From: Deltaproteobacteria bacterium
GTDB taxonomy: Bacteria > Campylobacterota_A > Desulfurellia > JAGGSF01
DNA length: 27,619 nt
Assembly: GCA_021159235.1 (NCBI GenBank)
Contig: JAGGSF010000027.1
Span: 1 to 27,619 of the forward strand
Direction: 5' to 3'
Shown here piece by piece: positions 1-27,619 of the stretch. The notes below the pieces were generated by a model. It saw only the letters and a list, made by a program, of their open reading frames with translations, was not told the origin of the DNA and made no database searches. How positions within the stretch are numbered: the first letter of the stretch is position 1; each line of letters opens with the position of its first letter. A program made the position numbers and the translations under genes.

Positions 1-699
1 GTACTCCTTAACCTTTTTTCTTAAAATCCTGAATGCATTAGATTTTTTAAAAAACAAAATTCCCTCGTTTTCAGAAACAAATTCTGCCAGATAATCCCTC
101 AACCTTTTATCATCTTCCATGCAATCTGCAGAAAGTCTCCATCTTTTTGTGTATACAGGGATGCCCAGCCGCCTGTCCTTGGCTATTTCATAGAACCATC
201 CGCCTATATTACCATCATTGAATTTAACGATTTTTTCTGAAGAAAAACAGGCCCTATGATAATGAGAATGGGATTCTACTTCTATTAAACCGCTTTTCTG
301 CATTTCTTCCAGTTCTCTCCAGCTCATAAATTCACTATCCTTAACGAATGTATGGACCTCTTTCATACTAAAGCCCATTTCCCTTATCTCTGATGACAGT
401 GGTCTTCTTAAGTTCTTATTACTTATTTTTGATGTTATCACAAATACTGTGCCAAAAAAACCGTATTGTTTCAGCAATGGATAGGCATAGATGAAGTTGT
501 CCACATAACCGTCATCAAATGTCAGATGGACAGACCTTTTTGGCAGACTTTTTTTACCCTTGATAAAATCATAAATGTCTCTCAGTTTAACGGGAGAAAA
601 TCCTTCCTTTTTTAAAATCCTTAGGTGTTCTTCAAATGTCTCAGGATCTATCCTTTCCCCATCTTTTATATGGTGATAACAGAGAATCAGTGCGCCCAT
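1..699 (-). CDS. Polysaccharide deacetylase (NodB-type), 3' end cut by window edge
   Basis: About 233 residues are visible, open from the ATG at 699 to base 1, so the C-terminus lies outside. The N-terminus MGALILCYHHI is typical of the family. The NodB metal site is visible as LTFDDGYVDN (Asp62-Asp63) and a histidine cluster SHSHYHR further on. Family members remove acetyl groups from N-acetylated sugars using a divalent metal. The start overlaps the end of the upstream glycosyltransferase gene by 13 bases, so the two are probably translationally coupled. Its place after two envelope glycosyltransferases suggests it acts on a cell-surface glycan or lipid-linked sugar; the substrate cannot be read from sequence. 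No signal peptide is seen, so a cytoplasmic or membrane-associated role is likely. Confidence 0.85.
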   Translation of the reverse strand, partial: MGALILCYHHIKDGERIDPETFEEHLRILKKEGFSPVKLRDIYDFIKGKKSLPKRSVHLTFDDGYVDNFIYAYPLLKQYGFFGTVFVITSKISNKNLRRPLSSEIREMGFSMKEVHTFVKDSEFMSWRELEEMQKSGLIEVESHSHYHRACFSSEKIVKFNDGNIGGWFYEIAKDRRLGIPVYTKRWRLSADCMEDDKRLRDYLAEFVSENEGILFFKKSNAFRILRKKVKEY

Positions 700-1670
700 A
701 TCTTCTCCATAAAGGGTTTTAGTTTTTCTTTTACCTCCTCTACACTCAATGTTTTTAAACATTCAAGTGTTTTGCAGCTTTTCTTATTGCAAGGCTGACA
801 GGATAGCCCCTTTGTAGTATATATATGCCTGGGATTGTCTGGGGGATGCCATCCTGAGGGATCACTCTTTCCAAATATTGTAAAAGACGGTGTATTTAGT
901 GCAACGGCAATATGCTTTGGTGCAGAATCATTCCCTATATGCAGGTTTGCCCTTTTTATTAAAGCGGTAAGTTCGGAAATGGTTGTGTTTTTTAAGAATG
1001 TGTGTTTTTTAGAAGATAAAGACAGTGCCTCTTCTACATATTCTATTTCATCCGGTGCAGATATAAATACAACTCTTGCTCCTGAATCATTCAGCCAATC
1101 TGCAATCTGTATGAACTTTTGTTTACACCATCTTGCAGTCTCTCTTCTATGTGTAATGTCCATCGTTACCAGAAAGTCATCTTTTTTTATACCAAGTTTC
1201 TCCAATTTATCATCTATCTTATTTTTGGATTTTTCAGAAATAAACAATCTTGGCTTTGCGCCTTTTGCATCTACGCCTATTGCTTTTATAAGTTCCAGTC
1301 TATCGAAAACTGTATATCCCCTATCTATAAAATACGGTGTAACATTATAGAATATGTTCTTCCACCAGTGTTTTCTGTGAAAGGCAACTCTTTTCTTAGC
1401 TTTGGAAAAGATAGTATAGATGATACTTTTAAAATTGTGTATAAAATCTACTGCAACATCAAATTTTTCTCTTCTGATTTCAAGAAGTGTTTTAAATCCG
1501 TCTTCTATGGTGTAAATTTTATAGATTGCAGGGTCATTCTGCAAGATCTCTTTCCCCATTTTATTTGTTAAGAAGGATGTTTTTATGTTGTTTTTTATCA
1601 GTGCATCTATGAGTGGGGTGGTGAGCACTATATCACCTAACCTTTTGAATTGAATGAGAAGCGCCTTCAT
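687..1670 (-). CDS. Glycosyltransferase family 9 (ADP-heptose:LPS heptosyltransferase-like)
   Basis: A 327-residue protein of usual length for the family. The N-terminus MKALLIQFKRLGDIVLTTPL is the GT9 signature for the first Rossmann fold. The C-terminal nucleotide-sugar half has IGNDSAPKH (245-253), then FGKSDPSGWHPP. The cysteine cluster Cys291, Cys294, Cys299 and Cys304 near the end is common in WaaF/WaaC-like enzymes. The family transfers heptose from ADP-heptose to the inner core of lipopolysaccharide; which acceptor is used here is unknown. The start lies 38 bases inside the end of the preceding gene, so expression is probably coupled. No good Shine-Dalgarno is seen before the ATG. Confidence 0.88.
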   Translation of the reverse strand: MKALLIQFKRLGDIVLTTPLIDALIKNNIKTSFLTNKMGKEILQNDPAIYKIYTIEDGFKTLLEIRREKFDVAVDFIHNFKSIIYTIFSKAKKRVAFHRKHWWKNIFYNVTPYFIDRGYTVFDRLELIKAIGVDAKGAKPRLFISEKSKNKIDDKLEKLGIKKDDFLVTMDITHRRETARWCKQKFIQIADWLNDSGARVVFISAPDEIEYVEEALSLSSKKHTFLKNTTISELTALIKRANLHIGNDSAPKHIAVALNTPSFTIFGKSDPSGWHPPDNPRHIYTTKGLSCQPCNKKSCKTLECLKTLSVEEVKEKLKPFMEKIWAH

Positions 1671-3123
1671 CTATTACTACCCAGTTTCCCTTCCTGTATA
1701 TCATTTTTCCTTTCAAGTAAGAAATCTTTGATGGTTTGGTGACAATATACCTGCTTTTTTTGTTTTCCACAACCCTTCCATTGTAATAAAAAACAAGAGA
1801 GAAAGGAGAAACATAAAAGGTAGATATTGTTTGATGAGGACAGGTACGATTTAAGAATCCTGCTACATCTTTTGCACTGCAGTAAGGAGATAAGTAATTC
1901 GTGGCCACGAAGAGCGTCACTAAAAATATTACAGTCATACTTGCTATGTTACCTGCAATTAAATTTCGTCCATACAGATATACTGCAGCCAAAAAGGGTA
2001 TAGACAATCCCATGAAGAGATAGAGCAGTGTATCTTCTGCATGTAGTTTGTAATAGAAGTGAATTGAAGCGCCAGCAACAATGAGTGTGTACAGTATTAT
2101 CTGCAAAAAAAGGAAACTTTTAGGTAGGCGAATGGATTTAATGTAACTTGCGCAGATTATAGCTGCTGCCGGGAAAAGAGGGAGAATATAATGGGGTAAT
2201 TTAGAATGGGAAAGACTGAAAAAGATAAATACTATTCCCAGCCACAATAAAGAGAAGAACTGTATTTTGTCCTTCTTTTTCCATATTAATTTTACCTTTT
2301 TTGCTATGCATAGACAAAAATATATACTCCAGGGAAAGAATCCGGCCAGGAATACAGGAATGTAATAAACGATGGGACCGGTTCGGTGATACTGGGATGT
2401 AAGAAATCTCAATATGTTTTCATGAAGCAAGAAATTACTTGAAAATCCGGGATAGGCATGTTCTACCATCAGATACCATGGCAGGTTGATGAAAAAAACA
2501 ACAGGCAATCCTAAATGTAAATAAAGCAGTTTTATGGATTTTGTAAAGTTATAGTGAAATAGTAGAAAGATAAAAGATATCAAAATGGGTAAGATTAAGG
2601 CTACGGGTCCTTTGGTTAAACACCCCAAACCCATAGAAATATAGGAAATAAAAAGATAGTATTTGTTCTTTTCTTTAAAATAAAGGTAAAAAAGATAGAG
2701 TGAGACGGAGAAGAAGAAGGTCAGGGTTGCATCAAATATCACATAGCGGGCATAGATAATGTATTCAAGAGATGTGGCCAATATAAGAGCTGAATAAAAG
2801 GCAAATTCCTTGGAAGATATTCTTCTTATAAAAAGATAGGTGGCTAATATAAGCAGCAGAGAAAATACAGCAGAGGGTAAGCGAGCCTGGCATTCTCCCT
2901 TTCCAAAAATTTTCATGGAAAAAGCGTCCATCCAGTAAAAAAATACAGGCTTGGAGATGTGAGCCTTTCCATTAAAAGTAGGCAATGCATAGTTTTTGTT
3001 TTTAGCCATCTCAAATGCTACTTCTGCATTCCTCCCCTCATCGGGGTCAAACAATGGACGAACATTTAGCAGGAAAAAAAAGAAAAACAAACATAGGACA
3101 AAAAGAACCAAGGCATTTTTCAT
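1633..3123 (-). CDS. GT83/ArnT-like membrane glycosyltransferase
   Basis: A 496-residue polytopic membrane protein, with roughly ten or more hydrophobic segments. The first periplasmic loop has DPDEGRNAE (26-34) and KPVFFYW (58-64), the conserved acidic and Lys-Pro motifs of the PMT/ArnT fold (GT39/GT83), whose members use polyprenyl-phosphate sugars as donors. ArnT itself adds aminoarabinose to lipid A; other members glycosylate other lipids or proteins, so the exact substrate is open. The ATG is only 11 bases past the 3' end of tRNA-Met and has no Shine-Dalgarno, so the mRNA is probably released by tRNA processing. It heads an envelope operon with the GT9 and deacetylase genes. Confidence 0.85.
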   Translation of the reverse strand: MKNALVLFVLCLFFFFFLLNVRPLFDPDEGRNAEVAFEMAKNKNYALPTFNGKAHISKPVFFYWMDAFSMKIFGKGECQARLPSAVFSLLLILATYLFIRRISSKEFAFYSALILATSLEYIIYARYVIFDATLTFFFSVSLYLFYLYFKEKNKYYLFISYISMGLGCLTKGPVALILPILISFIFLLFHYNFTKSIKLLYLHLGLPVVFFINLPWYLMVEHAYPGFSSNFLLHENILRFLTSQYHRTGPIVYYIPVFLAGFFPWSIYFCLCIAKKVKLIWKKKDKIQFFSLLWLGIVFIFFSLSHSKLPHYILPLFPAAAIICASYIKSIRLPKSFLFLQIILYTLIVAGASIHFYYKLHAEDTLLYLFMGLSIPFLAAVYLYGRNLIAGNIASMTVIFLVTLFVATNYLSPYCSAKDVAGFLNRTCPHQTISTFYVSPFSLVFYYNGRVVENKKSRYIVTKPSKISYLKGKMIYRKGNWVVIDEGASHSIQKVR

Positions 3124-3134
3124 ATTAGGTGAAG

Positions 3135-3208
3135 TGGCGGTGAAGGGACTCGAACCCCTGACACTGCGGATATGAGCCGCATGCTCTTACCAGCTGAGCT
3201 ACACCGCC
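3135..3208 (-). tRNA. tRNA-Met (anticodon CAT), elongator type
   Basis: A 74-base cloverleaf can be drawn in full: 7-bp acceptor stem GGCGGTG/CACCGCC with discriminator A, D-stem GCTC/GAGC, anticodon stem TGCGG/CCGCA around loop CTCATAT, and a T-arm with TTCGAGT. The anticodon is CAT. The first pair is G-C, not the mismatch of initiator tRNA, so it is elongator Met; a lysidine-modified tRNA-Ile2 cannot be fully excluded. The CCA tail is not encoded. It has its own promoter upstream and a protein gene starts 11 bases downstream. Confidence 0.95.
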
Positions 3209-3219
3209 TCAGGATAAAA

Positions 3220-3247
3220 GATATAATATGATTACACCAATTGTCAA
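3220..3247 (-). promoter_or_regulatory. Sigma70-type promoter of tRNA-Met operon
   Basis: A perfect -35 box TTGACA (3242-3247) is followed after 16 bases by TATATC (3220-3225), 11 bases before the mature tRNA 5' end. The -35 is a full match and the -10 a 4/6 match to consensus. It probably drives tRNA-Met and the three envelope genes behind it. Confidence 0.65.
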
Positions 3248-3321
3248 GGAAAATGCTTCAGGCATTTCCCTTGCAAAAATTAAAAATTTTTGTCAAGGGA
3301 TTAGAAATGCTTAAGCTATTT
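3241..3321. repeat. Imperfect duplication with two hairpins after the Rieske gene
   Basis: Two diverged copies of a segment occur: 3241-3268 and 3290-3321 both read TTGTCAAGG, then AAATGCTT, then a run ending in ATTTC, with a 4-base insertion in the second. The second copy includes the Rieske stop codon. The space between holds a 12-bp stem with one mismatch (3245-3256 with 3262-3273) and a 7-bp A/T stem (3274-3280 with 3286-3292). The first stem could slow or end transcription of the Rieske operon, but no T-tract follows it on the minus strand, so I do not call it a terminator. Confidence 0.5.
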
Positions 3322-3694
3322 CAACTGTGATTTTCCCGTTTTTTTTCACGAATGGTAGCTTATCTAATCCTCTTTTGGTTGGTCCGCATATGCGTTTACC
3401 ATCTATTGCATATTTGCTTCCATGACAGGGACACTCGAAGATGTTTTTCTTTCTGTTAAAGTTTACAATACATCCCAGATGGGTGCAGTGGGCAGAAAAG
3501 GCCATTATCCTTCCTTTCAAATTTACGACAAATACCTCATCTTTATAGGCTACTTTATCTAATTCCGCTTCTGTGAAGGTCACTTTTCTTTTCCCTTTGG
3601 GATTGAATAGTATAAAGGAAACTGCAGGAATGGCAAGGACACACACTGTAATGAGTGAGAGGATAAAATCTCTTCTACCTGTTTTTCGCTTCAT
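3311..3694 (-). CDS. Rieske [2Fe-2S] protein with Tat-like membrane anchor
   Basis: A 127-residue protein. The N-terminus has GRRDFI, a twin-arginine-like motif, followed by one hydrophobic segment (about 11-30), so it should be anchored on the outer face of the inner membrane. The cluster motifs are CTHLGC (ligands Cys70 and His72) and CPCHGS (Cys88 and His91). Cys75 and Cys90 are placed to form the disulfide typical of high-potential bc1-type Rieske proteins, so an electron-transfer role is likely rather than a dioxygenase ferredoxin. No cytochrome b gene is next to it, which is unusual for a bc complex subunit. The start overlaps the TorD-like gene by 20 bases. Confidence 0.92.
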   Translation of the reverse strand: MKRKTGRRDFILSLITVCVLAIPAVSFILFNPKGKRKVTFTEAELDKVAYKDEVFVVNLKGRIMAFSAHCTHLGCIVNFNRKKNIFECPCHGSKYAIDGKRICGPTKRGLDKLPFVKKNGKITVEIA

Positions 3695-4217
3695 CGGTAA
3701 TTACTCTTTCCACCAGGTCAAAGAGGATTCTGTAGAATTCTACCTTTGTGTTCTGTCTTACCTTTTTACTCAACTCTGATATCCATTTTATAAGATGTTT
3801 ATTTAAAAATTCCTGTTTTTGTTCGTAAAGTTTTTTCTCCTCTAAATAGTCTAAAAATGAGAGTTCTACAGAGAAGTGGTCGGGCAGATCGGGGAAGTCT
3901 TCTCTCAATTCCAGTCCTGCGTTTTTATACATACCTGTTATATCATCCACACAATCAGCCATCACCCTCTTTTCTTCTGTGATATAGGTGGACTCATAGG
4001 GAGATACGGGGAGTTCCGGATAGGAAGAGATAAACAATCTTGTATATTCTACACGCAACCTTTCCACATTTTCTCTTTCTACATGCAAGGACAACCTTTC
4101 TACCAGATCTCTTTCCCGCCCGCTTTGTAAAAGAAAATCAATAACATCTGGCCACAATTTAACTATTTCATCCCCGGGAAAGAGGGAGAGATAGGTCAAT
4201 GCACGAAAGATATTCAT
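3675..4217 (-). CDS. TorD/DmsD/NarJ-family maturation chaperone
   Basis: A 180-residue, mostly helical protein. It has the family's EYTRLF (57-62), VSPYES (71-76) and the DLPDHFSVEL segment (110-119), matching the conserved P-hinge and PDH motifs of TorD-like chaperones. Known members bind the Tat signal of molybdoenzymes and hold them until the cofactor is loaded. No molybdoenzyme gene is in this window; the directly following, overlapping gene encodes a Tat-like Rieske protein. A Shine-Dalgarno GAGGG lies 5 bases before the ATG, 7 bases after galE ends. Confidence 0.85.
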   Translation of the reverse strand: MNIFRALTYLSLFPGDEIVKLWPDVIDFLLQSGRERDLVERLSLHVERENVERLRVEYTRLFISSYPELPVSPYESTYITEEKRVMADCVDDITGMYKNAGLELREDFPDLPDHFSVELSFLDYLEEKKLYEQKQEFLNKHLIKWISELSKKVRQNTKVEFYRILFDLVERVITDEAKNR

Positions 4218-4224
4218 TTAACCC

Positions 4225-7186
<2,962 letters not shown>

Positions 7187-9183: not shown

Positions 9184-11330
9184 CTGAATAGTTTTTCAAA
9201 AAAGCTTTCTCTTGCCCGTTCTATTTCCTTTAGATTTATATCTATTGTGTTTTCAACGCGGAGCCTGTTTCCTTGTGTTTTTCCTATTTCTGTTATATTT
9301 ACCCCTTCCTTTTCTGCTGCAATTTTTATCTTTTCTTTATCTTTTGTGGTTATTATAATAACCTCCTGCGATTCGGAAAACAGCAAGAAGTCTTTTCTAC
9401 CTGGAAATGAAAGCTTTACTTTTGCACCTATTTTATTTTTTATGCTCATCTCTGCTAATGAGACAGCTATGCCTCCATCGGATATATCGTGAGCACAGCT
9501 GATTACATCTCTGCATGTTGTTATTATCTTTTGAAGTTTCTTTTCCATGTTTATATCGGGCTTAGGTGGTTTCCCTTCCACTTTGTTGTGTATCCATTTG
9601 AGATATGCGCTGCCTCCCAGTTCTCCCTGCTTCAGATTACCCAGAACGAGTATATCTTCTCCTTCATCTGTAAAAAATGATGGAATGCAGTGTTCTGCTT
9701 TTTCCAATATTCCTACCATGCCAATGACGGGGGTAGGGTAGATAGAGGTTTTATCCGTTTCGTTGTAAAAACTCACATTTCCACTGACTACAGGTGTATT
9801 TAGGATTTTTGCTGCCCGAGCAATACCTTCTACTGCTTTTTTAAATTGCCACATTATCTCTTCATTCTCTGGATTGCCAAAGTTCAGACAATCTGTCAAT
9901 GCAACGGGTTTTCCTCCACAGCAGGTGATATTTCTATAGCTTTCACATACTGCATTCATGCCTCCTGTAAACGGATCTAAATATGTATATCTCATATTTC
10001 CGTCTACTGTTATGGCTATGGCTTTATCTGTTTCTTTTATTCTAATTACACTGCAATCTGAACCAGGTCCCAATACAGTATTTGTTCCTACGGAAAAATC
10101 GTACTGTTCGTAGATCCATTTCTTTGAACAGAGGTCGGGAGAGGATAGCATTTTTAACAGTGTTTCGTTATAATCTTTTGGTTCTGGCAGGGAATTGTAG
10201 TTGGATTTACCTGTTGTTTTTAGATAAGAAGGCATCTTTGTCTTTCTCTTGTATTTTGGAGCTTTCTTTACCACAGCTGTTGTGGGCAAGGAGCAGATTT
10301 CATTTTCCTTAGAATAAATCTTTATACATCTTTCTTTTATCACTTCCCCAATTATCTCTGCATCCAACCCCCATTTTTTAAATATATTTATTACATCTTT
10401 TTCTTTCCCTTTTTTAGCTATGATAAGCATTCTTTCCTGTGATTCTGAGAGCATAATCTCTCTTGGGTTTAACTTTTCTCTTAAGGGCACTCTATCTAAG
10501 TGTAGTTTCATGCCCCTTTTTCCCCTGTCTGACATTTCAAAGGAAGAGGATGTTAGCCCTGCTGCTCCCATGTCCTGCATTCCCTCGATGAGTTTTTTGT
10601 CCATTACCTCTAAACATGCCTCCAAGAGAAGCTTTTCTGTAAATGGATCACCAACCTGAACAGCGGGTCTTTTTTCTTCTGCTTTTTTATCAAAGGATTG
10701 AGAGGCCATAACAGCTCCCTGTATTCCATCTCTTCCTGTCTTTGAACCTGCATAAATGACAGGGCTACCTATGGTTTTTGCCCTTCCCAGGATTATATTT
10801 TCTCTTTTTGTAATACCTACACAGAATGCGTTTACTAAATTATTCCTGTTGTAAGATTCATCAAAGTAGGTCTCTCCGCCTACGGTGGGAATACCCGTAC
10901 AGTTTCCGTAATCACCGATTCCTCTCACCACACCATCAATTAGATACTTTGTTTTTCTATCCCTGGGATGTCCAAATCTTAATGAATTGAGCATGGCGAT
11001 GGGTCTTGCTCCCATTGTGAATATATCCCTTAGAATCCCCCCTACGCCGGTAGCTGCTCCCTGATAGGGTTCGATGAATGAAGGATGATTGTGGCTCTCC
11101 ATTTTAAAGACAGCCACATATCCACTGCCAATATCTACTACTCCTGCATTTTCTCCCGGCCCTACGATAACTCTTTTCCCTTTAGTGGGCAGCTTTTTTA
11201 GGATGTACTTGGAGGATTTGTAGCTGCAGTGTTCACTCCACATGGCACTTATGATATCCAGTTCTAAGGGAGATGGTTCTCTTTTTAATATTTTCAAAAG
11301 ATATTTGTATTCTTCTTCATTTAGTTTCAT
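9180..11330 (-). CDS. purL: Phosphoribosylformylglycinamidine synthase, large subunit (PurL)
   Basis: A 716-residue protein, the length of the small-type PurL that works with separate PurS and PurQ. Seen motifs are WSEHCSYKS (31-39), ESHNHPS (78-84) and GAATGVGGI (91-99), which belong to the ATP and FGAR binding site. The enzyme makes FGAM from FGAR, glutamine-derived ammonia and ATP in purine synthesis. purS and purQ are not in the window. The gene is divergent from nuoA and has no clear ribosome binding site (only AAAGAG two bases before the ATG). Confidence 0.97.
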
Positions 11331-14221: not shown

Positions 14222-15244
14222 ATGGCAATGCATGTGCTTACCGGTGTAATAAAATTTATTGTTGCTTTTGCTGTGCTGGGGATTTATGCGTTGGTTATGC
14301 TTTGGTTTGAGCGTAAGGCATTGGGATTTTTTCAAATAAGAATAGGCCCGAAGCTCGTATCATCTGGCCTTGAAGGATTGCTTCAACCAGTTGCAGATAT
14401 GTTGAAGAGTTTGTGGAAAGAGGACATTGTTCCCCATCGAGCGGACAAACTGGTCTTCTGGGTTGCACCTGTTATTGGTGGTATGTTTCCATTTGCGGCG
14501 GCGTTGGCCATGCCATTTGGTCCTCCTATAAAGATTGGTGGTAGTTACTTTTATCTCTCGATTGTTCATGTAAATGTGGGCATCCTTTATATTCTCGCGG
14601 CATTAGGGCTTACTTCTTACAGTATTTTGTCTGCAGGTATTGCTGCTGGCGGGAATAAATACTCGTTGATAGGTGCTCAGAGAGAAGTGGCACAAATGGT
14701 TAGTTATGAAGTGGTTATGGCTTTGGCATTGCTCAATCCTATTTTAATGGCCCGTTCGCTGGATCTTTATGAAATCGTAGCTGCGCAATCTCACCATTTG
14801 TGGTTTGTTTTCTATCAGCCTGTGGCTTTCGTTGTATTTTTGATCTGTATGTTTGCAACAGCGGCAATTGTTCCCTTTGACCTTCCGGAAGCAGAACAGG
14901 AACTGGTGGCAGGATACAATACGGAGTATTCCGCAATGAAGATGGCCATGTTTCCCTTTGGTCAGTTTATAACGGTGCTCGTTATGTCTTCATTGATGGT
15001 AATCTTCTTTTTAGGAGGTTGGACAGGGCCTTATTGGGATGGCCATCCCTGGATACTGGGCTTCATATGGTATTGGGTAAAGGTTCTGTTTTTTGTATTT
15101 TTATTTATCTGGTCCTGGGGTACATTTCCGCGTTATCGTTATGATCAGTTGATGAATATGTGCTGGAAAATCCTGCTTCCGATATCTGTGTTAAATGTTT
15201 TGTGGACAGGTTTTGCGTTGATTGTGCATTTACCGATGATTTAA
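14222..15244 (+). CDS. nuoH: NADH-quinone oxidoreductase subunit H
   Basis: 340 residues with about eight membrane segments. The conserved cytoplasmic loop appears as IGPKLVSSGLEGLLQPVAD with LKSLWKED after it, and the acidic loop as PFDLPEAEQELVAGYNTEYS. NuoH contacts NuoB and NuoD and links quinone reduction to proton movement. It has the ribosome binding site GAGGTGA. Confidence 0.97.
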   Translation: MAMHVLTGVIKFIVAFAVLGIYALVMLWFERKALGFFQIRIGPKLVSSGLEGLLQPVADMLKSLWKEDIVPHRADKLVFWVAPVIGGMFPFAAALAMPFGPPIKIGGSYFYLSIVHVNVGILYILAALGLTSYSILSAGIAAGGNKYSLIGAQREVAQMVSYEVVMALALLNPILMARSLDLYEIVAAQSHHLWFVFYQPVAFVVFLICMFATAAIVPFDLPEAEQELVAGYNTEYSAMKMAMFPFGQFITVLVMSSLMVIFFLGGWTGPYWDGHPWILGFIWYWVKVLFFVFLFIWSWGTFPRYRYDQLMNMCWKILLPISVLNVLWTGFALIVHLPMI

Positions 15245-15253
15245 GGAGTAAGG

Positions 15254-15700
15254 ATGATGATGAAAGAACATATACTGTTTGCAGATTTGATTAAAGGTCT
15301 TTCTATAACGATTAAGAAGTTCTTCGGACCCAGTGTTACACTGCATTATCCTATTGAAAGAAGGGAAACTCCAGAGAGGATGAGATTCTTGCATAAGCTT
15401 GTTCTGAATTCTGCAGGTAGACCTAAGTGTATAGCTTGTGGATTTTGTGAGAGAATCTGTCCACCAAAGTGCATAAAGATAACGCGTGGAAAGCGTGAAG
15501 ACGGGAAAATAGGTCTTACAGGATATGAGCTTGATATAGGTAGGTGTATATTCTGTGGATTGTGTGTGGAGGTGTGCCCGGAAGAGGCTATCAGTATGAC
15601 AGATATTTACGAATTGGCAACATATAATAGGGCAGAGGCGGTTTATACAATGGACAGATTGGTGAGAGATGTCCCGGAAAAGAGAGAGGAAGAGGGGTAA
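15254..15700 (+). CDS. nuoI: NADH-quinone oxidoreductase subunit I (2x[4Fe-4S])
   Basis: 148 residues. The two clusters N6a and N6b are bound by Cys59, 62, 65, 69 (CIACGFCERICP) and Cys98, 101, 104, 108 (CIFCGLCVEVCP). Three ATGs stand in a row at 15254, 15257 and 15260; the first is taken, 5 bases from AAGGAG, but the second is equally possible. NuoI carries electrons toward NuoB and would be the entry point for any alternative electron donor in a complex without NuoEFG. Confidence 0.97.
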   Translation: MMMKEHILFADLIKGLSITIKKFFGPSVTLHYPIERRETPERMRFLHKLVLNSAGRPKCIACGFCERICPPKCIKITRGKREDGKIGLTGYELDIGRCIFCGLCVEVCPEEAISMTDIYELATYNRAEAVYTMDRLVRDVPEKREEEG

Positions 15701-15706
15701 TATAAA

Positions 15707-16219
15707 ATGACTGGTATTGAAGCGTGTGTTTTTGCTATCGTATCTTTGATGGCTATTGTGGGAGCATTAGGTGTGGTTTTTTGCAGGAATCCCTATCATA
15801 GTGCTCTGTGGATGGTTTTTTCCTTTGTCGGCATTGCCGGTTTATTTGCTCTTCTGCAAGCTTATTTTCTCACTGCTTTACAAATTATTGTTTATGCCGG
15901 TGCTATTGTGGTTATGATTGCCTTTGTAATGATGACCATAGATTTTAGAAAGGTGAGGGGGTTGAGTAAGTTTGTCCCTCAATGGCTGTGGGGTCTTATT
16001 ATTTCATTTGGTATTTTGATAGATCTGTTTATTCTTACATCTAAAATGAAGATTGATGTTTCTCAAGCAGGTAAGAATTTGGCAATAGCAGGAAGCAACA
16101 CGAAAGCATTGGGAATGGAGTTGTTTACCAGTTATCTCTTTCCATTTGAGATGGTAGCTGTAATTTTGCTGGTTGCCTTGATTGGTGTTGTTGTTTTGAC
16201 AAAAAGAGGAATAAAGTGA
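15707..16219 (+). CDS. nuoJ: NADH-quinone oxidoreductase subunit J
   Basis: 170 residues, five hydrophobic segments. The third has IVYAGAIVVMIAFVMM, which matches the conserved pi-bulge helix of NuoJ. It lies between nuoI and nuoK as usual, 6 bases from each. Confidence 0.95.
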   Translation: MTGIEACVFAIVSLMAIVGALGVVFCRNPYHSALWMVFSFVGIAGLFALLQAYFLTALQIIVYAGAIVVMIAFVMMTIDFRKVRGLSKFVPQWLWGLIISFGILIDLFILTSKMKIDVSQAGKNLAIAGSNTKALGMELFTSYLFPFEMVAVILLVALIGVVVLTKRGIK

Positions 16220-16225
16220 GGTAGA

Positions 16226-16531
16226 ATGATGCAGTATTATGTTCCCTTTTTGATGGTGGCTTTCATCCTCTTTGCTGTTGGTGCAATAGGTGTTTTGGTA
16301 AGAAGGAATTTCTTCGTTGTGCTTATGTCATTGGAGATAATGATTAATTCCGCAGGTCTGGTGTTTGTTATACTCTCTTATTTCTCAGGAACTATTTCCG
16401 GGCAGGTGTTTTTTATATTTGTAGCTGCTGTTGCTGCATCGGAAACGGCTGTAGGCTTGGCGATAGCGGTTTTGATGTACAGGGTAAGGCATACGGTGGA
16501 TGTAACTGAATTTAGTATAATGAAACGCTAA
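16226..16531 (+). CDS. nuoK: NADH-quinone oxidoreductase subunit K
   Basis: 101 residues with three membrane helices. The conserved glutamates in the membrane are seen in MSLEIMINSA and AAVAASETAVGLAI. Two ATGs are adjacent; the second at 16229 is 6 bases from GAGGT and may be the true start. Confidence 0.95.
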   Translation: MMQYYVPFLMVAFILFAVGAIGVLVRRNFFVVLMSLEIMINSAGLVFVILSYFSGTISGQVFFIFVAAVAASETAVGLAIAVLMYRVRHTVDVTEFSIMKR

Positions 16532-16543
16532 GAGGGGAAGCTT

Positions 16544-18427
16544 ATGGAATGGTTATTGCTTTTATGTGTACTTTCTCCGGCAGTAGGTTGTATTATTAAT
16601 GGCCTTTTTGGTAGATGGACCTATAGGGCTGCTGGTGTTATTGGTTCTACCTTTCTGGGTATATCTTTTGCCCTTGCTATTCCACTGATTATCTATGCCA
16701 TTCAGGGTCACATTATAGATTACGATTATTATCACTGGATCATATCTGGAAAGCTTGATGTGCCCTTTGGCCTGCGCTTAGACAGTTTATCGGCCATGAT
16801 GCTGGGTGTCGTGACCTTTGTGAGTTTTATGATTCATATATATTCTATCGGATATATGGGTGGTCATAAGGGATATGCCAGATTCTTTGCCTATCTCAAC
16901 CTCTTTGTCTTTGCAATGTTGCTCTTATGTATGGGCAACAATTACTTGACCTTATTCATAGGTTGGGAAGGTGTGGGTTTCTGTTCTTATATTTTAATTG
17001 GTTACTACTATGAGAAGAAAACAGCGGCGGATGCAGGCAGAAAAGCATTTGTTACAACCAGGATAGGTGATGTTGGCTTTACCATTGGTATACTTTTTAT
17101 CATTTTGTATTTCGGTTCTGTAAAATTTACGGATATCTTTCCTCAGGCTCATATACTCCCTCCAATGATAGCAACGATTATTACATTGGCTTTGTTCTTT
17201 GGTGCAACGGGGAAATCTGCACAGTTTCCGCTGTATGTGTGGTTGCCGGATGCAATGGAAGGTCCTACACCTGTTTCTGCATTGATTCATGCTGCAACCA
17301 TGGTTACAGCAGGTGTATATATGGTTGCTCGTTCAGCCCCGTTGTATGCATTGTCTCCGACGGGTAGTTTGGTGGTGGCAAGTATAGGAGCGTTTACAGC
17401 TTTCTTTGCAGCTACGATGGCTTTGACCCACTTCGATTTGAAGCGTATTCTGGCTTATTCTACCATCAGTCAGATAGGATATATGATGATTGGTGTGGGT
17501 GTGGGCGCTTACTGGACGGGCATGTTTCATTTGATGACACATGCTTTCTTTAAAGCCCTCTTGTTTCTTTCCGCAGGTGCTGTTATGCATGCTATGCATG
17601 GAATACTGGATATGAGATTGATGGGAGGATTGAGACACAAGATGCCTCAGACATGTGCTGTTATGATTATTGCCTCGTTGGCTATAGCCGGGATTCCACC
17701 GTTATCTGGTTTCTTTAGCAAGGATCATATATTGGGAGAAGCATTGATGTTGGGTCATCCCATCATTTGGATGGTAGGAGTGATTACAGCATTTATGACG
17801 GCGTATTACATGTTTAGAATGGTGTTTTTTACCTTCTTTGGAGAATCCAGGGTGCCGGAGGGGTTACATCCTCATGAAGCGCCAAATGTCATGCTGGTGC
17901 CATTATGGGTGCTTGCTGTGGGTTCTATTGTAGTGGGTGCAATTTTTGGAATAAAGATGCACGGTCATATACCAATAGAGCATTTCATTTCTCTTACTTC
18001 ACCAGTTGCATTCCCGAAGGTGTATGAGGTAAATGAAAGCTTGCTTATAATTATCTCCATTGTAGCTGGTGTTCTGGGCATTGCTGTAGCCTGGTTATCT
18101 TATATTCCTAAATGGGCACCTAAGTGGCGTTCTTGGTTTGTTCGTACTTTCCATCCTCTGTATAGATGTTGTTTTAATCTGTGGTGGGTGGATGAGGTAT
18201 ACAACTGTTTGTTCTGTCGTCCATTCTGGCATGTTTCGGAGAGGTTTTTATGGAAGGTTGTGGATGACAAACTCATCGATGCTGGAGTGGATGATGTAGG
18301 TCGGATTGCAGGTCTGGCGGGAAAGGCTGTTAGAATACTTCAAACCGGGTTTATAAATAACTATGCTTACTGGGTTTCTGCAGGGGCGTTGATTGTTTGT
18401 GGCTGGTATTTATTGAAGATTATGTGA
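16544..18427 (+). CDS. nuoL: NADH-quinone oxidoreductase subunit L
   Basis: 627 residues, an antiporter-like proton channel subunit with about 16 membrane helices. Typical segments are NLFVFAMLLLCMGNNYLTLF, GWEGVGFCSYILIG and KSAQFPLYVWLPDAMEGPTP with SALIHAATMVTAGVYM. The C-terminal part carries the long lateral helix of NuoL and a last membrane anchor. It has the ribosome binding site AGAGGGGAAG. Confidence 0.97.
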   Translation: MEWLLLLCVLSPAVGCIINGLFGRWTYRAAGVIGSTFLGISFALAIPLIIYAIQGHIIDYDYYHWIISGKLDVPFGLRLDSLSAMMLGVVTFVSFMIHIYSIGYMGGHKGYARFFAYLNLFVFAMLLLCMGNNYLTLFIGWEGVGFCSYILIGYYYEKKTAADAGRKAFVTTRIGDVGFTIGILFIILYFGSVKFTDIFPQAHILPPMIATIITLALFFGATGKSAQFPLYVWLPDAMEGPTPVSALIHAATMVTAGVYMVARSAPLYALSPTGSLVVASIGAFTAFFAATMALTHFDLKRILAYSTISQIGYMMIGVGVGAYWTGMFHLMTHAFFKALLFLSAGAVMHAMHGILDMRLMGGLRHKMPQTCAVMIIASLAIAGIPPLSGFFSKDHILGEALMLGHPIIWMVGVITAFMTAYYMFRMVFFTFFGESRVPEGLHPHEAPNVMLVPLWVLAVGSIVVGAIFGIKMHGHIPIEHFISLTSPVAFPKVYEVNESLLIIISIVAGVLGIAVAWLSYIPKWAPKWRSWFVRTFHPLYRCCFNLWWVDEVYNCLFCRPFWHVSERFLWKVVDDKLIDAGVDDVGRIAGLAGKAVRILQTGFINNYAYWVSAGALIVCGWYLLKIM

Positions 18428-18440
18428 TTAGGAGATAGGT

Positions 18441-20018
18441 ATGAATCAGTTGCATTTTCCCATTCTCTCATTTATAACATTTTGGCCGCTGTTGGGCGTA
18501 TTTATTCTTCTGTTCATAAACAGGAAGAATGAAACGGCGATAAGAATTGTTACCTTCGTTTTCATGTTGATAGATTTTCTCGTTTCCACCCTTCTCTATT
18601 TCTATTTTGATCCTACCACCTGGCAACCACAGTTTGTAGATAAGATTCCCTGGATCAGCAGTCTGGGAATGAACTATTATCTGGGAATAGATGGGTTGAG
18701 TTTGTTCCTGGTTATTCTTACTACCTTTTTGAGTGTCGTTGGCCAGTTTTCTACCTGGAGTGCAATAAAGGAGAAGGTTAAAGAATTCAACATCGTTTTT
18801 CTCCTCTTGCTCACCGGTATGCTGGGTGTATTTGAATCGTTGGATGCGTTTCTGTTTTATGTGTTCTGGGAATTTGAGCTTATTCCCATGTATCTTATGA
18901 TTGGTATATGGGGTGGACCGCATCGTGTTTTTGCCACTATGAAATTCTTCTTATATACATTTGCTGGTTCTGTATTTATGTTAGTGGCTATCATGGCTAC
19001 CTATTTCCTGTTTCACCATTATACGGGCACATATACATTTGATATGTTTCAACTTGCCTCTCATCCTCTTCCCCATCATCTACAATTCTGGTTGTTTTTG
19101 GCTTTCTTCCTGGCCTTTGCCATTAAGGTGCCCATGTTTCCGTTCCATACCTGGTTGCCGTGGGCACATGTGGAAGCACCGACTGCAGGTAGCGTGCTCT
19201 TAGCCGGGGTTCTGCTGAAGATGGGAACTTATGGTTTCTTGAGATTCAATCTACCCATGTTTCCCAGCATGACCCATGCTCTGGGCATACTGGTTATTGT
19301 TCTTGCCATTACAGGGATTTTCTACGGTGCAGTGGTGGCTATGGTGCAACCTGACTGGAAGAAGCTTGTTGCTTATTCCAGTGTAAGCCACTTGGGTTAT
19401 GCCATGCTGGGTATGTTTGCCTTAAATAGCCAGGGAATGGAAGGCTCCATTATGGAAATGATCAATCATGGCGTATCAACCGGGGCATTGTTCCTTATGG
19501 TGGGCATACTTTATGAGAGAAGGCATACCAGACTGTTTTCAGAATATGGAGGGATAGCCGCTATTATGCCCCGGTATGCAGTGTTGGCTGGTGTTGTTAC
19601 CCTTTCTTCACTGGGTCTTCCTGGTACAAATGGATTTATCAGTGAATTTCTCTGTTTAATAGGTGCATTTAAAGCCAACATCTGGTATGGAATAGTGGTG
19701 GCAGGAGGCGCTGTTGTAAGCGCAGTTTATCTTTTGATGATGTTCCAGAAGGTATTCTATGTGAAGACCAGGAATGTTAAGAATCTGGGATTGAAGGATT
19801 TGGATTTGAGAGAAACCGTTTATATGGGTATATGTGTGCTGGGTATCTTATGGATAGGTCTTTATCCCAATCCTCTCCTTTCCAGGATGCATGTGTCTGT
19901 GGAACACCTGTTGCAACATGTAAATAGCTATTCTAAACAGATTACAATAAATGTAGACAAGAATCTTACCTGTAATAAATTAGCGAAGATAAATGTGATA
20001 AGTAGGGGTGGGTTATGA
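18441..20018 (+). CDS. nuoM: NADH-quinone oxidoreductase subunit M
   Basis: 525 residues, antiporter-like subunit. Conserved parts are FYVFWEFELIPMYLMIGIWG and KVPMFPFHTWLPWAHVEAPT, with the expected membrane lysine and glutamate. The last 30 residues after the final helix are hydrophilic and longer than I would expect. The stop overlaps nuoN by 4 bases (ATGA). Confidence 0.96.
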   Translation: MNQLHFPILSFITFWPLLGVFILLFINRKNETAIRIVTFVFMLIDFLVSTLLYFYFDPTTWQPQFVDKIPWISSLGMNYYLGIDGLSLFLVILTTFLSVVGQFSTWSAIKEKVKEFNIVFLLLLTGMLGVFESLDAFLFYVFWEFELIPMYLMIGIWGGPHRVFATMKFFLYTFAGSVFMLVAIMATYFLFHHYTGTYTFDMFQLASHPLPHHLQFWLFLAFFLAFAIKVPMFPFHTWLPWAHVEAPTAGSVLLAGVLLKMGTYGFLRFNLPMFPSMTHALGILVIVLAITGIFYGAVVAMVQPDWKKLVAYSSVSHLGYAMLGMFALNSQGMEGSIMEMINHGVSTGALFLMVGILYERRHTRLFSEYGGIAAIMPRYAVLAGVVTLSSLGLPGTNGFISEFLCLIGAFKANIWYGIVVAGGAVVSAVYLLMMFQKVFYVKTRNVKNLGLKDLDLRETVYMGICVLGILWIGLYPNPLLSRMHVSVEHLLQHVNSYSKQITINVDKNLTCNKLAKINVISRGGL

Positions 20019-24677: not shown

Positions 24678-24848
24678 ATGCTAATTGGTTAAGTAATGTA
24701 AATAAAATTCAGCAGGGATGAATTGGACCTGCTCTCATCCAGAGAGATGTATATACGAAGTAGTTCAGGTATACTGCCGAGTTGGGATGATATGCGAAAT
24801 ATTGCGGATATGACGAAGTTATATGAAATAGCCCGTAAGAGGTGTTAG
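24678..24848 (+). pseudogene. Small broken ORF crossing the cassette boundary
   Basis: A good ribosome binding site GGGAGG stands 5 bases before an ATG at 24678, but this frame meets TAA at 24690 and again at 24699. The same frame then stays open from 24702 to a TAG at 24846-24848 (48 codons: IKFSRDELDLLSSREMY and so on). A TTG at 24723 preceded by CAGGG could start a 41-residue product. The last nine codons lie inside cassette 1, so the ORF is a hybrid of chromosome and cassette. It ends one base before the SIR2 ATG and contains its ribosome binding site, so it might couple translation. I do not recognise the protein. The remaining 24588-24677 is AT-rich and holds only the promoter described above. 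Confidence 0.4.
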
Positions 24849-25999
24849 AATGAATATTAAGGATGTAATAATCTTGGGTGCAGGAGCTTCAAAAAGTGAA
24901 GGTGCACCATTACAAAATGAACTATTTAAAGAATTCTTTGAATACTACAAACAGGTTTTAAAAGGTAAGGTATGGAGTTTATCGAAAAAACAAGAAAAAT
25001 TGATAGTAGAATATTTTAAGAAATTTTGGGGTATTGATATTGAAAATTTCCAAAATCGGGATGTAAAATTCCCTACCTTTGAGGAATGCTTAGGGGCCTT
25101 GGATTTGGCCTATCATCGTGGTGAAAGCTTTAAAGGTTATTCTAAGGAAAAAATAGAACAAATTAGAAATGCTTTAATCTTCCTCATAGCTAAAGTATTA
25201 GACGAAAAATTACGAGGAAAAATAATTCACCATAGAAAACTAGTTGATAGACTTAAAAATGAAGAAAGTCTTAAGCAAACTGCTTTTTTGAGCCTAAACT
25301 ATGATATAATTATTGATAACGTTTTAGTAGATTTATACGAAGAATTTCATCTTGATTATGGAATAGATCTTATAAATTTCGAAAGAAGAAGTGATTGGAA
25401 AAGACCCGATAAAAATAAGGCAGTGCTACTTTTGAAAATACACGGATCTTTGAATTGGTTATATTGCCCCACGTGTAATCATATTGAACTAACACCGAAA
25501 GAAAAAGGAGCTATTAAAGCCTTTTATAAAGTAGAGAAATGTACTGAATGTAAAACACCAATGGAACCCGTTATTATTCCTCCAACGTTTTATAAGGAAA
25601 TGACAAACCCATTTATTCAAAAGGTATTTTTAAAGGCGGATAAGGTTCTAAGAAGTGCTGAAAGAGTATTTGTATGTGGGTACTCTTTTCCAGATGCAGA
25701 TTTACATATCAAATATCTACTAAAAAGAGCTGAACAATTTAGGGAAGAGACTCCAGAAATATATGTAATTAATAATCATCCAAACAAAACAGATCAGCAA
25801 AAAGATGAAGAAAAGCAAGAAATTTGCAAATTCTTTAAGAACAAAGAAAAGATCCATTACACAAATTTATCGTTTGAAAAATTTGCAGAGAAAGGTGTAG
25901 AAAATGTATAAGCGGGCTACTTCATATAACAGCGGACATACGGCTACGCTACGCTTCGCCAAAATTCGGCAAAGCCGAACTTCGTATGTCCGCATACCG
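24819..25999 (+). mobile_element. Integron-type gene cassette 1 (SIR2-like gene)
   Basis: The unit is bounded on the left by G|TTATAT at 24818/24819 and on the right by G|TTATAT at 25999/26000, the expected crossover point of integron integrases. It holds one gene in the usual orientation with the attC site at its 3' end. Length is 1181 bases. The 19 bases at 25912-25930 pair with 24818-24836 in 17 positions, so a circle made of this unit would carry a continuous long stem. Confidence 0.75.
24850..25911 (+). CDS. SIR2-like domain protein with zinc ribbon (possible defence NADase)
   Basis: 353 residues. The N-terminus IILGAGASKSEGAP (7-20) is the nucleotide-binding loop of the sirtuin fold. 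LSLNYD (148-152, with Asn150) and KIHGSLNW (196-203, with His198) take the places of the TQN and HG motifs. A zinc ribbon follows, CPTC (206-209) and CTEC (231-234), then FVCGYSFPDADLHI near the C-terminus. SIR2-like proteins of this bacterial type often degrade NAD+ in anti-phage systems; deacetylase action is also possible. The ribosome binding site GAGGTG is good. Its base composition is AT-rich and unlike nuo. No effector or partner gene such as HerA is beside it; it stands alone in a cassette. Confidence 0.82.
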   Translation: MNIKDVIILGAGASKSEGAPLQNELFKEFFEYYKQVLKGKVWSLSKKQEKLIVEYFKKFWGIDIENFQNRDVKFPTFEECLGALDLAYHRGESFKGYSKEKIEQIRNALIFLIAKVLDEKLRGKIIHHRKLVDRLKNEESLKQTAFLSLNYDIIIDNVLVDLYEEFHLDYGIDLINFERRSDWKRPDKNKAVLLLKIHGSLNWLYCPTCNHIELTPKEKGAIKAFYKVEKCTECKTPMEPVIIPPTFYKEMTNPFIQKVFLKADKVLRSAERVFVCGYSFPDADLHIKYLLKRAEQFREETPEIYVINNHPNKTDQQKDEEKQEICKFFKNKEKIHYTNLSFEKFAEKGVENV

Positions 26000-26010
26000 T
26001 TATATGAAAT
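25919..26010 (+). repeat. attC-like recombination site 1
   Basis: An imperfect inverted repeat with the layout of an integron attC. R'' is ATATAAC (25924-25930), L'' GCGGACATACG (25932-25942), L' CGTATGTCCGC (25983-25993) and R' GTTATAT (25999-26005). L'' and L' pair perfectly over 11 bases. R'' and R' pair perfectly over 7. One base separates R'' from L'' while five separate L' from R', giving the unpaired bases that set strand choice. The 40-base centre (25943-25982) can fold further through TTCGGC/GCCGAA. Confidence 0.78.
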
Positions 26011-27177
26011 TCGGCTCGGCGGCTTTGAAATGGAGGTGGAAATATGGCAACAGAAATAAAAGTATGGCAAATTATTAACGGTAAATTGGAGCCTATTGAG
26101 ATAACAATGGTTGAAGCGGGACGAAAAGAACCAGATGACCTTGAGAAATGGATTAAAAGCAATCCCCAAATCCTTGGAGAAGATATATTGATTATAGGGG
26201 AGCAAGTGCCCACAAAATCAGGCCCAATGGATTTTCTTGGGATAGATAAATCAGGAAATCTTGTTGTAGTTGAATTAAAAAGAGATAAGCTCCCAAGAGA
26301 TGTATTAACTCAAGCTATTGATTATGCCTCAGATGTTTCTTCGTGGGACGTTGATAAACTCAGCGAAATATGTACCAAGTACACTAACCAAAGTTTGGAA
26401 GACTACTTAAGTGAGAAATTTGAAGAAATTGATCTAGAAGATTTAACCATAAATAAAACTCAGAGAATTCTCCTTGTTGGCTTTTCGATTGAGGAGTCAT
26501 TACAAAGAATGATTGAATGGCTTTCAAATAATTATGGAGTTAGTATCAATGCAGTCATTTTGAAATATGTGAAAACGAGGAACGGTGAAGAGCTTATTGC
26601 TCGAACGGTAATAATACCGGAAGAGATCGAGAAAGAAAGAATTAGAAAAAGGCAATTTAAAATTTTAATGTCCGACGAACCTGGGAAATACAATGAAGAT
26701 GAACTTAGAGATTTGCTGACTAACTATTTATCAGAGGCTAGAACTACTCCCCATCGTATAAGGGAAATTCTGCTTCCTCTGTGTTTAAAACACGAAGTTG
26801 TAAATAGAGAAATGATTAAAAAAGAATTACTTAAAAGAGGAGAGGCCAAAGATGATACACAGGCAGGTATTATATTGACGACCATTTCTAGAGAGATCGG
26901 AATCGCTAAAAGAGATTATTTAAGACAGATTATTCAATATGAAAAGGACCCATCAAAACCTTGGGAAAAGGAAAACTATGGACTAGTAGAACGTCACAAA
27001 GATTTGGTAAAGAGTGTATTAGAAGAACTGAATAAACAAAAAAAGGAAGAGTGATATGCCGCCGAGCCGAACTCTCCGCTTCGCTTTGGTGCTAACGCAC
27101 TCGGACAACAGGAGGATATGTGGCTTGCTTTGCTACGTCCAAATTTGCTTCCGCGAACTTCACATGTCCGCAAAACG
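26000..27177 (+). mobile_element. Integron-type gene cassette 2 (NucS-like nuclease)
   Basis: Bounded by the crossover points G|TTATAT (25999/26000) and G|TTAAGT (27177/27178), 1178 bases long with one gene. The 18-base direct repeat TGAAATTCGGCTCGGCGG begins both this cassette (26005-26022) and the next (27183-27200). The 14 bases GCCGCCGAGCCGAA at 27058-27071 pair fully with this cassette's own start at 26010-26023. Confidence 0.72.
26044..27054 (+). CDS. PD-(D/E)XK nuclease, NucS/DUF91-like
   Basis: 336 residues. The N-terminal 100 residues carry the nuclease core: Glu34 in LEKWI, Asp63 in PMDFLGID, Glu77 and Lys79 in VVVELKRD, and Gln90 with AIDYA. This order is that of the NucS/DUF91 branch, whose members cut branched or mismatched DNA. 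The C-terminal part (about 200-336) is helical and charged and I do not recognise it. The ribosome binding site GGAGGTGG is strong. Alternative roles are a restriction-like nuclease or a repair enzyme. It is alone in its cassette. Confidence 0.8.
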   Translation: MATEIKVWQIINGKLEPIEITMVEAGRKEPDDLEKWIKSNPQILGEDILIIGEQVPTKSGPMDFLGIDKSGNLVVVELKRDKLPRDVLTQAIDYASDVSSWDVDKLSEICTKYTNQSLEDYLSEKFEEIDLEDLTINKTQRILLVGFSIEESLQRMIEWLSNNYGVSINAVILKYVKTRNGEELIARTVIIPEEIEKERIRKRQFKILMSDEPGKYNEDELRDLLTNYLSEARTTPHRIREILLPLCLKHEVVNREMIKKELLKRGEAKDDTQAGIILTTISREIGIAKRDYLRQIIQYEKDPSKPWEKENYGLVERHKDLVKSVLEELNKQKKEE

Positions 27178-27200
27178 TTAAGTGAAATTCGGCTCGGCGG
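27058..27200 (+). repeat. attC-like recombination site 2, long and asymmetric
   Basis: R' is GTTAAGT (27177-27183), a perfect GTTRRRY match. L' CACATGTCCGC (27161-27171) pairs with GAGGATATGTG (27112-27122) at 9 of 11 positions. The left core GGACAAC (27103-27109) keeps only the AAC of R''. The outer arms GCCGCCGAGCCGAA (27058-27071) and TTCGGCTCGGCGG (27188-27200) pair, but about 31 extra bases lie between the left arm and the left core, unlike site 1. Confidence 0.65.
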
Positions 27201-27619
27201 TTTATCAATAGATTTAAAAGGTTGGAATCAATTATAGTATTGTGGAGAGAACAATCATGAACCAAGAAATTAAAACCAAAGGAGAAATAATGCTAGAAAA
27301 AGCAGAAAAAATAGGAGATTTTTGGGCATTTAAAGAGGAACCATTATCCAAAGAAAAACAGTTAGTGTTATTTGACAATGTCCAATTTATCTACGAATTA
27401 GCATTGGCACAACTTGAATTAAAGGCTTTGGGAGTAGAATTTGAAGTTACCAATGGATTAAGGGAGTTTAGACTTTTAAAAGAGCCTGAAGATACAAAAT
27501 CACTTAAAAGAAAACTTGCATATTTTAAATTGATTAAAGGTGAATATACAGATTATTTTTACATTGTAAGGAAAAACCGCACAAGGTCGGTAAATCAGTA
27601 TTTGACCCACTGGATATAT
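27178..27619 (+). mobile_element. Integron-type gene cassette 3 (cut by window edge)
   Basis: It begins at the G|TTAAGT crossover (27177/27178) with the same leader TGAAATTCGGCTCGGCGG as cassette 2, followed by about 55 bases of AT-rich sequence and one gene. The attC at its end is outside the window. Confidence 0.6.
27257..27619 (+). CDS. Unidentified protein, N-terminal 121 residues; possible DNA methyltransferase
   Basis: Open from ATG at 27257 to the edge, with ribosome binding site GGAGAG 7 bases upstream. The visible part is charged and mixed helix/strand, without signal peptide or membrane segments. The segment RSVNQYLTHWIY at the very end resembles, from memory, the stretch that comes before the SAM-binding motif in some DNA methyltransferases of the N4/N6 amino group; this is a weak resemblance and the catalytic part would lie outside. 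Treat as hypothetical. Confidence 0.55.
   Translation, partial: MNQEIKTKGEIMLEKAEKIGDFWAFKEEPLSKEKQLVLFDNVQFIYELALAQLELKALGVEFEVTNGLREFRLLKEPEDTKSLKRKLAYFKLIKGEYTDYFYIVRKNRTRSVNQYLTHWIY

What the first reader, a model, noticed from the sequence alone, without database searches (positions are those of the whole stretch)
24819..27619. Integrase-less array of integron gene cassettes carrying SIR2 and nuclease genes
Three single-gene units in the same direction are separated by attC-like inverted repeats with R'', L'', L' and R' boxes and GTT crossover points. No integrase gene is present in the window; the left neighbour is an ordinary transporter gene. Cassettes outside class 1 integrons seldom have known functions, and this set (SIR2-like, NucS-like nuclease, possible methyltransferase) looks like a mobile store of DNA-defence genes. 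The box layout is seen directly; the integron assignment rests on established attC structure; the defence role is inference.
Basis: partly seen in the sequence, partly recalled or inferred. Interest (0 to 1): 0.88.

Follow-up and report, generated by a model that had tools for sequence, protein, structure and literature searches.

The report
Integrase-less integron array of defence genes
The end of this contig is a real row of integron gene cassettes, starting at an attI-like docking site but with no integrase gene found in the genome, and its cassettes resemble anti-virus genes: a well-formed new example of a known kind of element.

Summary
attC1 (25920-26008) and attC2 (27099-27186) belong to a structured site family. 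The model includes both; it finds two further sites in the same genome that were not used to build it (contigs C59 and C22), plus sites in related genera. In 13 aligned sites the inner stem is 89.5% paired, with two-sided changes at 7 of 11 pairs. Each cassette's 5' end is complementary to its own 3' end (15.5 and 14; 0 of 1000 shuffles), as in class 1 controls.

The array begins at an attI-like site: ATATGAC-GAA-GTTATAT, compare attI1 CTAAAAC-AAA-GTTAGGC. In a congener the same sequence leads, exactly at GTTA, into a different cassette (methyltransferase plus MjaI-type restriction enzyme). No intI was found in the three genomes of the genus, only Xer-type recombinases. C59 carries an Hma-like defence system behind an attC. 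Cassette 3 is the start of a DNA methyltransferase cut by the contig end.

This is a CALIN-type integron remnant (or a platform served from outside) holding defence genes. The kind is known. Modestly new: attI-like site without intI, one attC family shared across lineages, a side-arm in some sites. Defence function is inferred.

The parts
24770..24821 (+). block conserved in congener G001 (87%), ending at the GTTA junction; contains the attI-like site
   Evidence: homology stops exactly at the crossover
24808..24824 (+). attI-like simple site: L box ATATGAC, GAA, R box GTTATAT
   Evidence: compare attI1 CTAAAAC-AAA-GTTAGGC in L039; only 1 of 865 GTT sites in the window (both strands) has such an L/R match at this spacing
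24819..25999 (+). cassette 1
   Evidence: bounded by GTT crossovers; own-end complementarity 24818-24835 / 25913-25930, 17 of 18
24850..25911 (+). SIR2-like protein, 353 aa (P0001)
   Evidence: Pfam SIR2_2 31.5 bits, over cut-off; PADLOC SIR2 6.6e-15
25920..26008 (+). attC1 (R'' 25924-25930, L'' 25932-25942, L' 25983-25993, R' 25999-26005)
26000..27177 (+). cassette 2
   Evidence: GTT crossovers; own-end complementarity 26010-26023 / 27058-27071, 14 of 14
26044..27054 (+). NucS_C-like PD-(D/E)xK protein, 336 aa (P0002), PADLOC candidate PDC-S11
   Evidence: 78-88% identical relatives in other lineages
27072..27102 (+). side-arm insert 5' of R'' (hairpin GTGCTAACGCAC at 27089-27100), conserved in several other sites
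27099..27186 (+). attC2 (R'' 27103-27109, L'' 27114-27123, L' 27161-27169, R' 27177-27183)
27178..27619 (+). cassette 3, cut by the contig end
27242..27619 (+). N-terminal 126 aa of a DNA methyltransferase (P0003)
   Evidence: 78% identical to a 438-aa methyltransferase with SGTT and TSPPY motifs; its relative L057:9113-10408 matches type II methyltransferase models

Best explanation
This is the left end of a chromosomal integron cassette array whose integrase gene has been lost, or that is served by an integrase from outside: a CALIN that still keeps an attI-like site. Shown: structured attC sites, cassettes with self-complementary ends, an attI-like junction, and different first cassettes at that junction in two species of one genus. 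Inferred: an integron integrase (IntI) recombined folded bottom-strand attC sites of single-stranded cassettes with the attI-like site; the cassettes encode a SIR2 NADase-type abortive protein, a PD-(D/E)xK nuclease, and a restriction-modification system, kept as a swappable store of defence against phages and plasmids. The array probably runs on through contig C59 (Hma-like system) and may end at C22 next to argG. Confidence that these are integron cassettes is about 0.95; the number below is for the whole statement including the missing integrase.
For: attC1 stem score above all 300 shuffles and fold z -6.9. 13-site alignment: inner helix 89.5% paired, 7 of 11 pairs with two-sided changes, 0/500 shuffles reach the covariation score, slid controls at most 45% paired. 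Two untrained sites elsewhere in the same genome. Own-end complementarity of cassettes 1 and 2 (15.5 and 14, 0 of 1000 shuffles), G009 cassette 15, class 1 controls mostly 8-13.5. attI-like site with a different cassette behind the same GTTA in G001. No intI in G000, G001, G002; best hits 84-86 bits against a cut-off of 265, while a true intI elsewhere gives 448. Cassette genes match defence families.
Against: All three genus genomes are draft assemblies, and arrays break assemblies, so an intI on a missing contig cannot be excluded. IntegronFinder and its attC model could not be run, and a class 1 trained model misses both window sites. R2 includes both window sites, so its hits on them are not independent. 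attC2 alone has a poor short fold. The attI assignment rests on architecture and two genomes only. The G001 cassette has only what looks like a decayed attC, not found by the model, and its end complementarity is not significant (p = 0.24). No recombination or defence activity was measured.
Confidence: 0.68

Rival explanations
1. A complete integron whose intI is merely absent from the draft assembly or was binned elsewhere.
For: 122 contigs, the window ends inside the array, attC at the starts of C59 and C22; draft genomes overestimate CALINs (PMC9024848). A sister family (G005) has an intI-like gene of 240 bits, with a stop, at a contig end.
Against: intI normally sits beside attI, but here an ordinary transporter gene starts 230 bp left of the attI-like site with no integrase between; three genomes of the genus at 95-100% completeness all lack it.
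Confidence: 0.2
2. Cassettes inserted at a non-integron genomic site (attG-like) by an integrase acting from a plasmid or from passing DNA; 24818 is not an attI.
For: No intI next door; attG insertion is described (PMC12901181). In the closed genome G009 a two-gene cassette lies between two attC sites next to transposase genes and no intI.
Against: The same 52-bp sequence leads into different cassettes in two species and has attI1-like box spacing, as expected of a reused docking site.
Confidence: 0.18
3. An ordinary defence island with chance or unrelated inverted repeats.
For: Defence genes often cluster; Xer-type recombinases are the only tyrosine recombinases that the intI search found in this genome.
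Against: Structure with compensatory changes, exact GTT junctions, own-end complementarity with class 1 positive controls.
Confidence: 0.03

Closest known systems
[quoted passage not shown] IntegronFinder, PMC9024848)
   Same: At least two attC sites with cassettes and no intI nearby.
   Different: Keeps an attI-like site at the left edge; attC sites are of a divergent family that a class 1 trained model misses.
Sedentary chromosomal integrons as stores of anti-phage genes (Darracq et al. 2024 preprint, seen only as a citation in PMC12137116)
   Same: Cassettes with defence-like genes.
   Different: No integrase found; a 1.1-Mb genome of an unnamed lineage; only three cassettes in the window, the last one cut.
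Archaeal integrons with shared bacterial attC types (Ghaly et al. 2022, PMC9668308)
   Same: The same attC family and an 87% identical P0002 relative lie on a contig binned as Aenigmatarchaeota.
   Different: That contig is 3.9 kb; its archaeal origin was not verified here.
Class 1 integron attI1 / attC
   Same: attI1 box layout, GTT crossover, own-end complementarity of cassettes.
   Different: Site sequences diverge; no clear extrahelical base in the inner stem of attC1; some sites carry an extra side-arm.

Membership tests
Integron gene cassette | attC with paired R''/R' and L''/L' boxes and GTT crossover | tested here: met
   (L''/L' 89.5% paired; R''/R' 61.5%, AAC/GTT nearly invariant)
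Integron gene cassette | cassette ends complementary, so that circularisation rebuilds attC | tested here: met
   cassettes 1 and 2, with class 1 controls
Integron gene cassette | gain or replacement at the exact junction between related genomes | tested here: met
   G001 has another cassette behind the same GTTA; one comparison only
Integron gene cassette | recognised by the IntegronFinder attC model | not testable with these tools
   model not available; a home-made class 1 model does not hit
Integron gene cassette | recombination by IntI | not testable with these tools
   needs an experiment
CALIN | two or more attC sites without intI | tested here: met
   draft genome caveat
Complete integron | intI gene present beside attI | tested here: not met
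   none in the window or genome
Complete integron | attI site | tested here: inconclusive
   attI-like architecture and conserved block; function not shown
Anti-phage defence genes | homology to defence families | tested here: met
   P0002 is only a candidate family (PDC-S11)
Anti-phage defence genes | measured protection against phage | not testable with these tools
   needs an experiment

The most novel reading that the evidence does not exclude
One attC family, including a subtype with a conserved side-arm 5' of R'', circulates among several bacterial lineages and possibly archaea in genomes without intI, and carries mainly restriction, nuclease and other DNA-defence cassettes: a specialised defence-gene exchange network moved by integrases in trans and docked at attI-like sites that lack a resident integrase.
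Probability: 0.25. Interest if true: 0.68.

Novelty: new member of a known kind. Interest (0 to 1): 0.48.

Why it matters
It shows how an integron platform can persist and change its cassettes in a small-genome lineage where no integrase was found, and links one attC family to defence cassettes in several lineages. That makes testable whether such cassettes are exchanged by foreign integrases, and gives a way (attC-bounded searches with a lineage-specific model) to find uncharacterised defence genes outside classic defence islands.

Tried and rejected
Class 1 attC model as an independent detector: too narrow, misses the window sites. One mixed MAFFT alignment of class 1 and local sites: misaligned, not used. 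Rfam has no hit on the sites. IntI candidates in the own genome: both are Xer-type, 274 and 296 aa. Compact 283-aa integrase of G009: not called intI; its match leaves out model positions 180-239, so it seems to lack the IntI-specific insertion. attC-like site left of 24818: none convincing. Relatives of the SIR2 and nuclease genes among IMG/VR viral contigs: none found. Plasmid relatives are only distant. Side-arm folding of the long attC2 type: the fold varies between members, so its structure is left open. End complementarity of the G001 cassette and of one cassette on the Aenigmatarchaeota-binned contig: not significant.

Full report
What is there. The window is a whole contig of a draft genome (G000:C10, 27,619 bp; genome 1.13 Mb in 122 contigs), and the finding lies at its right end. 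Left of it is an ordinary stretch of chromosome (respiratory complex I genes, a transporter gene on the other strand; named from the translations).

Are the sites real? attC1 scores 21.4 in a stem scan, while 300 dinucleotide shuffles of the region never exceed 17.2 and the next site on the + strand of the whole window scores 14.1. Its bottom strand folds at z = -6.9. attC2 is less regular on its own, but it aligns column by column with attC1 and with sites found next to relatives of the cassette genes. A covariance model of six such sites, which include attC1 and attC2, found two more in the same genome that were not in the training set, at the starts of contigs C59 (65 bits) and C22 (32 bits), and others in genera of the same class (only 150 candidates per genome were scored, so counts are lower bounds). 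In an alignment of 13 sites made without the structure, the L''/L' helix is 89.5% paired, 7 of 11 pairs show changes on both sides, no shuffle of 500 reaches the covariation score, and slid controls drop to 45% paired or less. Ten of the 13 were placed with the help of the model or were in its training set with attC1, so the site boundaries lean on it. The R''/R' helix is weaker (61.5%), apart from the AAC/GTT core.

Are they cassettes? In a true cassette the 5' end was joined to its own 3' end in the circular form, so the two ends should be complementary. Cassette 1: 17 of 18 bases; cassette 2: 14 of 14; neither is reached in 1000 shuffles. The cassette of the closed genome G009 gives 15 of 15. 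Class 1 resistance cassettes, run as controls, mostly give 8 to 13.5.

The left edge. The 17 bases 24808-24824 read ATATGAC-GAA-GTTATAT; attI1 of class 1 integrons reads CTAAAAC-AAA-GTTAGGC. Of 865 GTT sites in the window (both strands) only one has an inverted L/R match of 6 or more of 7 at this spacing. (attI1 itself and G001 share the layout, not that degree of L/R match: 3 and 4 of 7.) In G001, a second species of the genus, the preceding 52 bases are 87% identical and lead, exactly at GTTA, into a different gene pair: a DNA methyltransferase and an MjaI-type restriction enzyme, followed by what looks to the eye like a decayed attC (the model does not find it) and then a core gene. So the same docking site holds different first cassettes in two species. 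In G002 the same left neighbour is kept, but homology fades before 24770; it has what reads as another restriction-modification set in the cassette direction, without recognisable attC.

The integrase. The intI model finds only Xer-type recombinases in G000, G001 and G002 (best 84-86 bits; cut-off 265; a true intI in G049 gives 448). A sister family has an intI-like gene with a stop codon at a contig end (G005, 240 bits). The definition of CALIN (PMC9024848) is met, with the caveat given in the same paper that drafts overcount CALINs.

What the cassettes encode. P0001 has a SIR2_2 domain over the Pfam cut-off. P0002 has a NucS_C-like PD-(D/E)xK domain (solved relative 2vld) and matches the PADLOC candidate family PDC-S11. 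P0003 is the first 126 residues of a DNA methyltransferase; relatives are 431-438 aa and in G011 the next gene is a type II restriction enzyme. C59 has, right behind its attC, a helicase matching HmaA at 686 bits, a nucleotidyltransferase-type protein, and an HmaB-type methylase. C22 has its attC directly before argG, which may be the right end of the array. Attached to sites of the same family elsewhere are further methyltransferase and nuclease pairs in G009, G011 and G023. G007 has an HNH nuclease and a P0002 relative next to attC sites. That these protect against phages is inference from homology.

Spread. P0002 has relatives of 88% identity in Thermoanaerobacter wiegelii (no attC found there), 87% in a 3.9-kb contig binned as Aenigmatarchaeota with attC sites on both sides, and 78% in a WOR-3 contig with an attC behind it. 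Bacteria and archaea sharing attC types is already reported (PMC9668308). The archaeal binning was not checked.

An odd detail. In attC2 and several other sites (C59, G009, G016, WOR-3, possibly a third site on the Aenigmatarchaeota-binned contig) a stretch with a GTGC-NNNN-GCAC-like hairpin sits just 5' of R''; the 3' arm of G009's site is nearly identical to that of attC2 although the host family differs. Its folding differs between members, so its role is open.

Verdict. Integron cassettes: about 0.95. CALIN-type remnant with an attI-like site and no resident integrase: about 0.68. The kind is known; this is a clear new member with some uncommon features.

Noticed in passing
L083 (G000:C59) 156-5910: attC followed by an Hma-like system: HmaA-type helicase (686 bits), nucleotidyltransferase-type protein, HmaB-type methylase; a 136-aa ORF between them has no match.
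   Followed up: partly
L084 (G000:C22) 118-200: attC directly before argG and other core genes; possibly the right end of the array.
   Followed up: partly
window 27072-27102; L083 about 120-155; L085 minus strand near 10660; L087 minus strand near 600: Conserved side-arm with a GTGC-NNNN-GCAC hairpin 5' of R'' in a subset of attC sites.
   Followed up: partly
L029 5974-7013 (Thermoanaerobacter wiegelii): 88% identical P0002 relative without attC, lying between similar short coding stretches (the same peptide motif appears on both sides).
   Followed up: no
L011 / L022 (G005:C14:32253-33195): intI-like gene with in-frame stops at a contig end in a sister family.
   Followed up: partly
L034 (G049:C360) 14228-19142: intI over the curated cut-off (448 bits) with an attC-like site (17 bits) further along in the same direction.
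   Followed up: no
L036 (G002:C73) 1-2389: What reads as a restriction-modification set at the same chromosomal place, same direction, without recognisable attC.
   Followed up: partly
L044 (IMG/VR contig): 57% identical relative of the P0003 fragment on a contig listed as viral.
   Followed up: no
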